Source of the DNA: Bolinopsis microptera
Lineage: Eukaryota > Ctenophora > Tentaculata > Lobata > Bolinopsidae
Assembly: GCF_026151205.1 (NCBI RefSeq)
Contig: NC_087082.1
Coordinates: forward strand, 18,633,401-18,693,400
Length of the DNA stretch: 60,000 nt
Direction: 5' to 3'
The number at the start of each line of letters is the position of its first letter. Positions within the stretch are counted from its first letter, which is position 1. Positions 42,501 to 46,206 of this stretch are shown here, piece by piece. The notes beneath the pieces were generated by a model that made no database searches, was not told the origin of the DNA, and saw only the letters and a program-made list of their open reading frames with translations. A program made the translations under genes and the position numbers.

Positions 42501-42612
42501 GAGTACTGACGCTCTACTGTTCATAGGAGAGTAATGGTGCTCTACTTCTCATAGGAGAGTAATGGTGCTCTACTTCTCATAGGAGGGTACTGGTGCTCTG
42601 CTGTTCATAGGA
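36541..42612. repeat. 28-bp minisatellite array, left part (~6.1 kb)
   Basis: Roughly 215 imperfect units with core ACTGGTGCTCTACTGTTCAT followed by AGGAGAGT. Common variants are ATGAGTGT, AGCAGTGT, AAGAGAG, CTTCTC for CTGTTC, and a longer unit with GACTACC inserted. Larger duplications are superimposed: 37811 recurs at 38104, and 40704-41365 recurs from 42138 (offset 1434). Twenty-eight is not a multiple of three and there is no long frame. Function unknown. Confidence 0.97.
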
Positions 42613-44263
42613 TTTTTTTTTTTTTTTTTTATTGGAAATGAGGAGTCAAATAGGATACAAAATGAACATGGAATTCTAAGAACGAGAATATTCGGGAACA
42701 AATCAATGTCAAAATTGTTAGCAATTCGCCTCACATATAACAATATATATACAAAATAAAAATTTCGCGGCTAAAATAGTATATTTACATCGACTGCTTC
42801 ACAGAACCAGATCCAGCTAGATTTAGGGAAGTTAAAAGAAATAAATTAAAACGTGAATGTTCGTTTTCAAATTTAAGCCTCTTCTCCCTCTTCCTCCTCT
42901 TCGTCGAATTCTCCTTCCTCCTCGGCGGTGGCGTCCTGGTACTGTTGGTATTCGGATACGAGATCGTTCATGTTGCTCTCGGCTTCAGTGAACTCCATCT
43001 CGTCCATGCCTTCACCAGTGTACCAATGGAGGAAAGCCTTTCGCCTGAACATAGCAGTGAACTGCTCGCTGATCCTCTTGAAGAGCTCCTGGATGGCGGT
43101 GCTGTTTCCGATGAAGGTAGCAGACATCTTGAGTCCTCTGGGAGGAATGTCACAGACGGCGGTCTTGACGTTGTTGGGGATCCATTCGACGAAGTAGCTG
43201 CTGTTCTTGTTCTGTACGTTCAGCATCTGCTCGTCAACTTCCTTCATGGACATACGTCCTCTGAACATAGCGGCGACTGTGAGGTATCGGCCGTGTCGGG
43301 GATCGCAAGCGGCCATCATGTTCTTAGCGTCGAACATCTGTTGGGTGAGTTCTGGAACTGTGAGGGCTCTGTACTGCTGGGAACCTCTGCTTGTGAGTGG
43401 GGCGAATCCTGGCATGAAGAAGTGAAGTCTGGGGAAGGGAACCATGTTGACGGCGAGTTTCCTGAGATCAGCGTTGAGCTGTCCAGGGAATCTGAGGCAG
43501 GTGGTGACACCAGACATGGTGGCGGAGACGAGATGGTTGAGATCTCCGTATGTGGGGGTGGTGAGTTTGAGGGTTCTGAAGCAGATATCGTACAGGGCTT
43601 CGTTGTCGATAGCGAAGGTTTCATCTGTGTTCTCTACGAGCTGATGGACTGAGAGGGTGGCGTTGTAGGGCTCAACGACGGTGTCTGATACTTTTGGGGA
43701 GGGTACTACTGAGAAGGTGGTCATGATTCTGTCTGGGTATTCTTCACGGATTTTGGAGATGAGGAGTGTTCCCATTCCAGATCCAGTTCCACCGCCAAGA
43801 GAATGAGTCAGCTGGAATCCCTGAAGACAGTCACAGCTTTCAGCTTCCTTTCGTACTACGTCCAAAACAGAGTCTACAAGTTCAGCTCCCTCGGTGTAAT
43901 GTCCCTTGGCCCAGTTGTTTCCGGCACCAGATTGTCCGAACACGAAGTTGTCAGGTCTGAAGATCTGACCGAAAGGTCCTGATCGAACGGAGTCCATGGT
44001 TCCTGGTTCCAAGTCAACGAGTACAGCTCTGGGCACGTATTTGCCTCCTGTGGCCTCGTTATAGTACACGTTGATCCTCTCCAATTGAAGGTCGGAATCT
44101 CCGTGGTAGGTTCCAGTTGGGTCAATGCCATGCTCGTCAGAGATGACTTCCCAGAACTTGGCTCCAATCTGGTTGCCGCATTGGCCAGCTTGTAGATGAA
44201 CAATTTCTCTCATGTTGACTAAAGTTAGATCGACTAAGTATGCAGACGAATTAAAGTTAAAGT
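42613..44263 (-). mobile_element. Retrocopy insertion (beta-tubulin mRNA copy) in the minisatellite
   Basis: Left edge: 18 T's (42613-42630), a poly(A) tail in the sense of the gene, directly joined to an array unit ending GGAT. Right edge: a 50-base 5' UTR, then GGATAGTACTGG, the array resuming in register. GGAT (42610-42613 and 44264-44267) is a 4-bp direct repeat. The undisturbed sequence ATAGGATAGTACTGG exists at 41174 in the duplicated array segment, and the ~199 bases after both sites match. AATAAA overlaps the start of the A tract. These are hallmarks of LINE-type retrotransposition of a spliced mRNA. Confidence 0.85.
42873..44213 (-). CDS. Beta-tubulin, intronless, full length (446 aa)
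   Basis: ATG at 44213, TAA at 42873. Complete beta-tubulin: N-terminal MREI tetrapeptide (the tubulin mRNA autoregulation signal), GTP-binding [10 protein letters not shown] at about 138-147, the conserved [14 protein letters not shown] near 335, and an acidic tail [16 protein letters not shown] that interacts with MAPs and motors. It forms the beta subunit of alpha/beta heterodimers in microtubules. No stop, frameshift or missing core motif. G/C-richer codons than the surroundings. It has no introns and sits in a retrocopy, so its expression must come from sequence in the 5' UTR or the array. It is either very recent or a functional retrogene. Confidence 0.97.
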
Positions 44264-46206
44264 GGATAGTACTGGTGCTCTACTGTTCATATGAGAGTAC
44301 CGGTGCTCTACTGTTCATAAGAGAGGACTGGTGATCTACTGTTCATAGGAGAGTAATGGTGCTCTACTGTTCATAGGAGAGTAATGGTGCTCTACTTCTC
44401 ATAGGAGGGTAATGGTGCTCTACTGTTCATAGGAGAGTAATGGTGCTCTACTGTTCATAGGAGAGTAATGGTGCTCTACTGTTCATAGGAGAGTACTGGT
44501 ACTTTACTGTTCATAAGAGAGTACCGGTGCTCTACTTCTCATAAGAGGGTACTGGTGCTCTACTGTTCATATGAGAGTACTGGTACTTTACTGTTCATAA
44601 GAGAGTACCGGTGCTCTACTTTTCATAAAAGGGTACTGGTACTTTACTGTTCATAGGAGAGTACTGGTACTTTACTGTTCATAAGAGAGTACTGGTGCTC
44701 TACTGTTCATAGGAGAGTAATGGTGATCTACTGATCATAGGAGAGTAATGGTGCTCTACTGTTCATAGGAGAGTAATGGTGCTCTACTGTTCATAGGAGA
44801 GTACTGGTACTTTACTGTTCATAGGAGAGTACTGGTACTTTACTGTTCATAAGAGAGTACTGGTGCTCTACTGTTCATAGCAGTGCACGGTTGCTCTACT
44901 GTTCATAATAGAGTACTGGTATTCTACTGTTCATAGGAGAGAACTGGCGCTCTACTGTTCATAGGAGAGTACTGGTACTTTACTGTTCATAGGAGAGTTC
45001 TTGTGCTGTACTGTTCATAGAAAAGTACTGGTGCGCTACTGTTCATAGGATAGTACTGGCGCTCGACTGTTCATAGGAGAATAATGGTGCTCTTCTATTC
45101 ATAGGAGAGTACTGATGCTCTACTGTTCATAAGAGAGTACTGGTGCTCTACTGTTCATAAGAGAGTACTGGTGCTCTACTGTTCATATGAGTGTACCGGT
45201 GCTCTACTTTTCATAAGAGGGTACTGGTACTTTACTGTTCATAGGAGAGTACCGGTGCTCTACTTCTCATAGGAGGGTACTGGTGCTCTACTGTTCATAT
45301 GAGTGTACCGGTGCTCTACTGTTCACAGGAGAGTACTGGTGCTCTACTGTTCATAGGAGAGTAATGGTGCTATACTGTTCATAGGAGAGTAGTGGTACTT
45401 TACTGTTCATAGCAGTGCACTGGTGTTTTACTGTTCATAATAGAGTACTGGTATTCTACTGTTCATAGGAGAGTACTGGCGCTCTAATGTTCATAGGAGA
45501 GTACTGGTACTTTACTGTTCATAGGAGAGTAATGGTGCTCTACTTCTCATAGGAGGGTAATGGTGCTCTACTGTTCATAGGAGAGTAATGGTGCTCTACT
45601 TCTCATAGGAGGGTACTGGTGCTCTACTGTTCATATGAGTGTACCGGTGCTCTACTGTTCACAGGAGAGTACTGGTGCTCTACTGTTCATAGGAGAGTAA
45701 TGGTGCTATACTGTTCATAGGAGAGTAGTGGTACTTTACTGTTCATAGCAGTGCACTGGTGCTTTACTGTTCATAATAGAGTACTGGTATTCTACTGTTC
45801 ATAGGAGAGTACTGGCGCTCTAATGTTCATAGGAGAGTACTGGTACTTTACTGTTCATAGGAGAGTTCTGGTGCTCTACTGTTCATAGAAGAGTACTGGT
45901 GCGCTACTGTTCATAGGATAGTACTGGCGCTCGACTGTTCATAGGAGAATAATGGTGCTCTTCTATTCATAGGAGAGTACTGATGCTCTACTGTTCATAG
46001 GAGAGTAATGGTGCTCTACTGTTCATAGGAGAGTAATGGTGCTCTACTGTTCATAGCAGTGTACTGACTACCGGTGCTCTACTGTTCATAGGAGGGTACT
46101 GGTGCTCTGCTGTTCATAGGAGAGTACTGGTGCTCTACTGTTCATAGGAGGGTACTGGTGCTCTGCTGTTCATAGGATAGTACTGGTGCTCTACTTCTCA
46201 TAGGAG
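44264..46206. repeat. 28-bp minisatellite array, right part (~1.9 kb)
   Basis: Continuation of 36541-42612 after the tubulin insertion, in the same orientation and register. It contains its own larger repeat: 45321 onward recurs at 45657 (offset 336, twelve units), with the rare variants TTCACAGG and GTGGTACTTT in both. Confidence 0.97.

What the first reader, a model, noticed from the sequence alone, without database searches (positions are those of the whole stretch)
42610..44267. Intact beta-tubulin retrogene dropped into a minisatellite, with its empty site preserved next door
The 446-codon intronless tubulin has an 18-nt poly(A) tract, a short 5' UTR and a 4-bp GGAT direct repeat at its borders. 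The array was duplicated earlier (offset 1434), so the uninterrupted sequence exists at 41174-41190, and about 199 bases after both sites match exactly. The insertion is therefore younger than the array duplication. An undamaged ORF in such a setting is either a very young retrocopy or a functional gene driven from within a satellite. The 4-bp duplication is shorter than usual for LINE-mediated insertion.
Basis: seen in the sequence. Interest (0 to 1): 0.8.

Follow-up and report, generated by a model that had tools for sequence, protein, structure and literature searches.

The report
Recent beta-tubulin retrocopy in minisatellite
A messenger RNA for the structural protein beta-tubulin was recently copied back into DNA and inserted into a repetitive array in what is very probably a comb jelly genome; the site and parent gene show a well-known process caught early, with no sign yet that the copy does anything.

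Summary
Window 42614-44263 (minus strand) is an intronless beta-tubulin cDNA with both UTRs, a 17-18 nt A-tract and a 4-bp GGAT direct repeat. It sits seamlessly in a 28-bp minisatellite; the uninterrupted version lies 1434 bp upstream. I found the parent on another chromosome (G000:C5:1.696 Mb): four coding exons, GT-AG introns, identical 446-aa protein. The copy differs from the parent mRNA at 9 of 1634 sites: seven synonymous, two in the UTRs. An older retrocopy (C2) assigns six of the nine to the parental allele and only three to the retrocopy. The insertion is therefore very young (about 0.2% own divergence) and came from a parental allele unlike the reference one. With so few changes, the intact ORF says nothing about function. 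The short duplication, odd for mammalian L1, fits the genome's own young LINE family, whose truncated copies mostly show 0-4 bp duplications (17 of 21 scored). The organism is very probably the ctenophore Bolinopsis microptera. Verdict: a clean but ordinary processed retrocopy. A weaker lead: its 3' end resembles the LINE's 3' terminus.

The parts
42614..44263 (-). inserted processed beta-tubulin retrocopy (5' UTR, CDS, 3' UTR, A-tract)
   Evidence: removing it restores array identity over 140 + 195 bp; collinear with the spliced parent mRNA on C5
42873..44213 (-). CDS, 446 codons plus stop, protein identical to the parent; joins of parental exons at 44157/44156, 43979/43978 and 43778/43777 (counted from the exon lengths)
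44214..44263 (-). 5' UTR (50 nt), collinear with parent DNA to its first base; no extra leader sequence
42631..42872 (-). 3' UTR, ends ...CATTTCCAAT before the A-tract; the parent continues ATAAAG
42613..42630 (-). A-tract, 17-18 nt (42613 shared with the target repeat)
42610..42613 (+). target-site duplication GGAT, left copy
44264..44267 (+). target-site duplication GGAT, right copy
41176..41179 (+). GGAT of the paralogous empty site
40703..41374 (+). array block holding the empty site (672 bp, 2 mismatches to its duplicate)
42137..44462 (+). duplicate of that block, interrupted by the insertion
36541..46206 (+). 28-bp minisatellite array hosting the insertion
58312..59852 (-). part of a copy of a young endonuclease-type LINE family, candidate source of the enzymes (inferred); it continues towards the window end
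   Evidence: RVT_1; 39 further places genome-wide; EN + RT and ORF1 in another copy

Best explanation
A spliced beta-tubulin mRNA from the four-exon gene on C5 was reverse-transcribed and inserted into the minisatellite on C11, most likely by a LINE through target-primed reverse transcription: a nick after ...TCATAGGAT, first-strand synthesis from the A-tail to near the 5' end of the mRNA, and a second nick 4 bp away, leaving GGAT on both sides. Shown: parent, loss of its three coding introns, A-tract, both UTRs, target duplication, empty site. Inferred: that a LINE did it, and that it was the resident endonuclease-type family. The event is recent. The copy carries about 3 substitutions of its own, and most of its differences from the reference parent are allelic differences of the parent. 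It has brought no promoter and there is no sign of selection on it; it is best treated as an intact but so far functionless retrocopy, possibly still polymorphic in the population.
For: Parent at G000:C5:1695853-1698299 with coding exons 57, 178, 201, 905 bp and GT-AG introns. Protein identical, 446 of 446 aa; 7 CDS differences, all synonymous third-position C/T; 2 UTR differences; 9 of 1634 aligned mRNA sites in all. Older intronless copy on C2 shares the retrocopy state at 6 of 9 sites and the parent state at 3 of 9. If the 6 parental changes (6 of 292 synonymous sites) postdated insertion, a neutral copy should carry about 34 changes; 3 are seen, P about 2e-11; even with only synonymous and UTR sites free, 12 are expected, P = 0.002. 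The copy's own 0.18% (3 of 1634; 95% 0.04-0.54%) agrees with the array duplicates, 0.30% (2 of 672; 0.04-1.08%). SNP heterozygosity of 2% is reported for another ctenophore, so a 2% synonymous allelic difference is unremarkable (PMC8527503 passages). TSD and empty site. LINE family with endonuclease, RT and ORF1, copies up to 99.8% identical, truncated copies with directly adjacent duplications of 0-4 bp.
Against: The TSD is only 4 bp, and two bases of it (CC on the gene strand) also match the parent just upstream of the copied part, so the junction could be partly microhomology. The nick site GGAT/AGT offers only one T to pair with the A-tail. Permutation support for real TSDs in the resident LINE is marginal (mean 1.06 vs 0.64 bp, p = 0.065), and one copy (L022) shows an 8-bp match when the search is widened to 3 bases inside the 5' flank and 7 past the A-tail, so longer, imperfect duplications cannot be excluded for that family. 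No reads or second individual were available, so the assembly and allele state rest on one haplotype. Polarisation rests on one diverged copy (C2); at CDS 153 the four intron-bearing paralogues agree with the parent instead, and at 453 they carry a third base.
Confidence: 0.88

Rival explanations
1. Endonuclease-independent capture: the minisatellite suffered a staggered double-strand break and a stray tubulin cDNA was ligated in, with a 4-base fill-in giving the GGAT repeat and 2-nt microhomology at the 5' end.
For: 4-bp TSD; CC microhomology at the 5' junction; target not T-rich; arrays are break-prone (general knowledge).
Against: A cDNA with both UTRs and an A-tract directly against the target repeat is the usual mark of target-primed insertion (general knowledge); the resident LINE's own truncated copies also mostly lack long TSDs.
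Confidence: 0.1
2. The copy is a functional retrogene, transcribed from within or beside the array and kept by selection.
For: Intact ORF; protein identical to the parent; the only retrocopy-specific CDS change is synonymous. Precedent in this genome: the C2 retrocopy kept a 443-codon ORF at dS 0.21, dN 0.039, which neutral simulation (substitutions only) rarely allows: open in 0.85% of runs if half of dS is its own, 7.9% if a quarter, with 94 or 51 amino-acid changes expected against 34 seen.
Against: Only 3 copy-specific changes, so no power; no TATAA on the gene strand in the 437 bp upstream; no expression data.
Confidence: 0.08
3. Assembly artefact: a cDNA-like contig misjoined into the array.
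For: Arrays are hard to assemble; no reads seen here.
Against: Unit phase is unbroken across the insert, exact target repeat at both edges, and identity to the neighbouring block on both sides; copy-specific substitutions exist.
Confidence: 0.02
4. Insertion by an LTR-retrotransposon integrase, which makes 4-6 bp duplications (recalled).
For: TSD length.
Against: No sequence at all between the target repeat and the cDNA at either edge, so no LTR; the A-tract abuts the target.
Confidence: 0.02

Closest known systems
Processed retrocopies (processed pseudogenes / young retrogenes) made in trans by LINEs
   Same: Intronless copy of a spliced mRNA, A-tract, short direct repeats, unlinked site, no promoter carried over
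   Different: TSD 4 bp; human L1-mediated mRNA retrocopies, full-length or truncated, are not associated with short TSDs (PMC2912911 abstract and passages)
Retrocopy number variants, e.g. in equids (PMC10249811, seen only as search listing with the start of the abstract)
   Same: Very young retrocopies that can be polymorphic within a species
   Different: Polymorphism not tested here; invertebrate host; empty site known from a paralogous array block rather than from another individual
C2:5936612-5938230 beta-tubulin retrocopy in the same genome
   Same: Same parent, intronless, UTR similarity on both sides, open frame
   Different: Older (92% nt identity), no A-tract at its end, changed C-terminal tail and second residue; shows signs of past constraint

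Membership tests
Processed retrocopy | Lacks introns that the parent has | tested here: met
   3 coding introns in C5 parent, none in copy
Processed retrocopy | 3' A-tract | tested here: met
   17-18 nt; starts inside parental AATATAAAG
Processed retrocopy | Flanking target-site duplication | tested here: met
   GGAT, 4 bp, checked against an empty paralogous site
Processed retrocopy | Inserted away from the parent, without its promoter | tested here: met
   C11 against C5; similarity stops within 2 nt of the copy's 5' edge
Functional retrogene | Open reading frame | tested here: met
   446 codons
Functional retrogene | Purifying selection on the copy | tested here: inconclusive
   3 copy-specific changes, 1 in CDS
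Functional retrogene | Transcription of the copy | not testable with these tools
   no RNA data
LINE-mediated (target-primed) insertion | Young LINE with endonuclease and RT in the genome | tested here: met
   RVT_1, Exo_endo_phos_2, ORF1; near-identical copies
LINE-mediated (target-primed) insertion | TSD length matches that LINE | tested here: inconclusive
   17 of 21 copies scored: 0-4 bp directly adjacent, permutation p = 0.065; one wider 8-bp match in L022
CR1-like LINE clade | RT phylogeny places it in the clade | not tested
   clade name recalled from domain make-up only

The most novel reading that the evidence does not exclude
The 3' edge of the retrocopy was set by the LINE, not by ordinary polyadenylation: the tubulin 3' UTR carries a look-alike of the LINE's own 3' terminus (tubulin CATTTCCAATA, LINE GATTTCAATAAAAAA), which let the LINE enzyme adopt this mRNA as if it were its own RNA. 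That would explain why the A-tract begins inside a polyadenylation-signal-like AATATAAAG rather than 10-30 nt after it, why the older C2 copy ends at about the same place, and why this one gene has yielded two retrocopies. Of 282 possible ends in the parental 3' UTR and its downstream DNA the actual one is the single best match to the LINE terminus, and 2 of 5000 shuffles reach its score. The comparison was made after seeing the resemblance.
Probability: 0.13. Interest if true: 0.5.

Novelty: new member of a known kind. Interest (0 to 1): 0.3.

Why it matters
It is a clean, datable snapshot of mRNA retrocopying in an early-branching animal, with parent, empty site, target duplication and a candidate LINE all in one assembly. 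It gives a ready assay (copy-specific bases and a presence/absence junction) for whether retrocopies in ctenophores are polymorphic and transcribed, and it probably preserves a parental allele that the reference lacks. It does not change what is known about the process.

Tried and rejected
Alpha-tubulins on C1 that looked intronless proved to be segmental duplicates with an intron right after the ATG (read from the printed sequence of L031 and L032), not retrocopies. A COX1 search to identify the organism found nothing; a paper search on the assembly size found nothing; the glutamate-receptor route worked, although with the whole receptor as query full-length kainate receptors rank first and the ctenophore entries, which hold only the ligand-binding domain, come later. 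Survey for other retrocopies, three families only: RPS3A gave 1 match; RPL3 gave 7 matches, 6 of them pieces on C10 and one on C1, and no full-length intronless copy. Actin gave 90 matches, 13 of them covering nearly the whole domain in one frame. I fetched 7 of those 13 and 5 exon-split loci: pairs listed are 84-93% identical (apart from the 101-bp overlap of two fetched stretches), and the only A-run of 9 or more lies 823 bp past an ORF, so no further young retrocopy among these 12; the other 6 of 13 were not looked at. LTR-integrase insertion: rejected because the edges are bare. TSD survey: of 21 LINE copies with a candidate 5' truncation 4 were dropped (L035, L036, L042, L043) because their 3' ends were incomplete; repeats made of A only were not counted; copies whose 5' end was not held were not scored. 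The chromatin-loop paper (PMC12221973, passages) gave nothing used.

Full report
What is there. The window is G000:C11:18633401-18693400 of a 264.65-Mb assembly in 232 contigs. A 28-bp minisatellite runs from 36541 to 46206 and is split by a 1654-bp stretch: the 1650-bp insert 42614-44263 plus one copy of GGAT. The insert, read on the minus strand, is a 50-nt 5' UTR, a 446-codon beta-tubulin ORF, a 3' UTR and an A-tract of 17-18. GGAT lies at both edges, and the uninterrupted sequence lies 1434 bp upstream with exact identity for 140 bp to the left and 195 bp to the right. After removal of the insert in a script, this is the strongest ungapped long duplicate in the array: 672 bp, 2 mismatches. 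A 52-mer over the empty site is found exactly only at that neighbour and with 1-2 mismatches at four more places, all in this array; none of the five matches lies on another contig.

The array family looks local. Of 322 matches to the consensus unit with up to 2 mismatches only the first hundred or so are printed; those printed all lie on C11, in three clusters near 17.81, 17.89 and 18.67 Mb.

The parent. A whole-genome search found the source at C5:1695853-1698299. Its four coding exons are bounded by GT-AG introns, and its protein is identical to that of the copy. Seven CDS differences are all synonymous C/T changes at third positions; there is one difference in the 5' UTR and one in the 3' UTR. 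Similarity begins at CC-ACTTTAAC: the copy's first base beyond the target repeat is the A, and the parent also has CC there, so 2 nt of the 5' junction are ambiguous. The copied 5' end lies 20 nt after the start of a TATAAAA-like motif in the parent. [quoted passage not shown] none is present in this copy, which runs on the parent's own DNA to its first base.

Dating. A second, older intronless copy of the same parent, at C2:5936612-5938230, polarises the nine differences: it agrees with the retrocopy at six (CDS 153, 453, 459, 882, 1158, 1227) and with the parent at three (CDS 411 and both UTR sites). At CDS 153 the four intron-bearing paralogues agree with the parent, and at 453 they carry a third base, so those sites are less certain. 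Had the six parental changes arisen since insertion, a neutral copy should have about 34 changes, not 3 (P about 2e-11), and even a constrained one about 12 (P = 0.002). The simplest reading is that the copied allele differed from the reference allele by about 2% at synonymous sites, which is plausible given 2% SNP heterozygosity reported for Hormiphora californensis (PMC8527503 passages), and that the insertion itself is younger, 3 of 1634 sites (0.18%, 95% 0.04-0.54%). The duplicated array blocks, 2 of 672 (0.30%), give a compatible outer bound, provided conversion has not homogenised them. Unequal exchange between occupied and empty alleles could also produce the present arrangement, so 'younger than the array duplication' is likely rather than proven.

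Function. An open frame carries no weight here: with three random substitutions 89% of simulated copies stay open. No TATAA lies on the gene strand in the 437 bp of array upstream. By contrast the C2 copy has dS 0.21 and dN 0.039 against the parent and keeps 443 codons. Under neutrality, counting substitutions only, this would be unlikely: open in 0.85% or 7.9% of runs, with 94 or 51 amino-acid changes expected for two assumed splits of dS, against 34 seen in 443 aligned residues. So at least one retrocopy of this gene seems to have been retained for a time.

Machinery. A LINE family with a copy in this window (58312-59852, minus) has 39 further places in the genome with a 3' part 85-95% like it; only 40 of 367 candidates were scored, so this is a lower bound. 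Two copies are 99.8% identical to a third over 1.0-1.3 kb. A longer copy on C9 encodes an ORF1 with a 2OG-Fe(II) oxygenase domain and a GDSL esterase domain, and an ORF2 with endonuclease and reverse transcriptase. Its 3' end is GATTTCAATAAAAAA, with A-runs of 6-10 in 14 of 17 scored copies. In 17 of 21 copies that could be scored the repeat directly flanking the element was 0 bp in eleven and 2-4 bp in six (5 bp in one copy if three extra bases are allowed); the excess over permuted flanks is marginal (p = 0.065). A wider search gave one 8-bp match, in L022. All scored copies are 5'-truncated. So a 4-bp duplication is not unusual for this family, unlike human L1, where full-length copies peak at 14-16 bp and mRNA retrocopies are not associated with short ones (PMC2912911 passages). 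That this LINE made the copy is inference.

The 3' edge. The A-tract starts at CCAAT|A, inside the parental AATATAAAG, where one would expect a polyadenylation signal rather than the cleavage site (expectation from general knowledge). Among 282 possible ends this one is the best match to the LINE terminus, and the C2 copy stops at about the same place, though its exact edge cannot be fixed. This is suggestive of LINE 3'-end mimicry, but it was noticed after the fact, and a genuine cleavage site there would look the same. The A-tract of the copy (17-18) is longer than any A-run among the scored LINE copies (up to 14), which favours a real poly(A) tail.

Organism. A glutamate-receptor segment from C1 matches the receptor ML032222a best in the PDB (116.6 bits) and next 4zdm (103 bits), against 49.6 for the best kainate receptor (that ML is Mnemiopsis and 4zdm Pleurobrachia is recalled). 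With the whole receptor as query, longer kainate-receptor chains rank first. With 13 large contigs (lengths printed or implied by match positions are 15 Mb or more for C1-C13, while C14 is 198 kb) and 264.65 Mb it fits Bolinopsis microptera, 265 Mb and 13 chromosomes (PMC11797021 passages; PMC10232365 passages). The published scaffold count is 346, here 232, so the species name stays an inference.

In print. Searches for ctenophore with retrogene (6 papers), ctenophore with processed pseudogene (4), and retrogene with beta-tubulin and processed pseudogene (2) listed nothing that, by title and start of abstract, describes this case.

Verdict. A textbook young processed retrocopy, well preserved and well documented; new as an instance, not as a kind.

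Noticed in passing
L014 (G000:C2:5935600-5939300), CDS at 1049-2380: Older intronless copy of the same tubulin gene with an open 443-codon frame and 34 amino-acid differences; second residue is G instead of R (MGEI for MREI, the motif that I recall as the tubulin autoregulation signal) and the acidic C-terminal tail is altered. Looks constrained for part of its life.
   Followed up: partly
L008:1457-1837, L012:1501-1670, L015:616-853: Diced pieces of the tubulin last exon and, in L015, the 3' UTR, with internal deletions and in L008 reordering, embedded in a dispersed repeat; the flanks of L008 are alike to those of both L012 and L015. 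Looks like a mobile element that captured tubulin fragments.
   Followed up: partly
L048:106-1611 (G000:C9) and window 58312-59852: LINE whose ORF1 joins an AlkB-like 2OG-Fe(II) oxygenase domain to a GDSL esterase domain. One paper search on AlkB, esterase, ORF1 and non-LTR retrotransposon listed 8 of 25 papers, none naming such a LINE in its title or abstract start; one concerns a demethylase domain in orchid Ty3/Gypsy elements (PMC9289625, listing only).
   Followed up: partly
G000:C11:17806540-17809026 and 17887386-17887706: Two further clusters of the same 28-bp minisatellite about 0.8 Mb away on the same chromosome.
   Followed up: no
L054 and L059 (G000:C11:11633200-11638700): An intronless actin directly downstream of a related actin that is split by a gap of about 1.26 kb, 88-92% identical; could be intron loss or local retroposition.
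   Followed up: no
window 51347-53119: Another reverse-transcriptase ORF (RVT_1), not classified.
   Followed up: no
L031, L032, L033 (G000:C1): Three alpha-tubulin genes spread over 0.43 Mb; L031 is 98.4% identical to L032 and 96.5% to L033 over about 2 kb that include non-coding flanks: recent segmental duplicates.
   Followed up: partly
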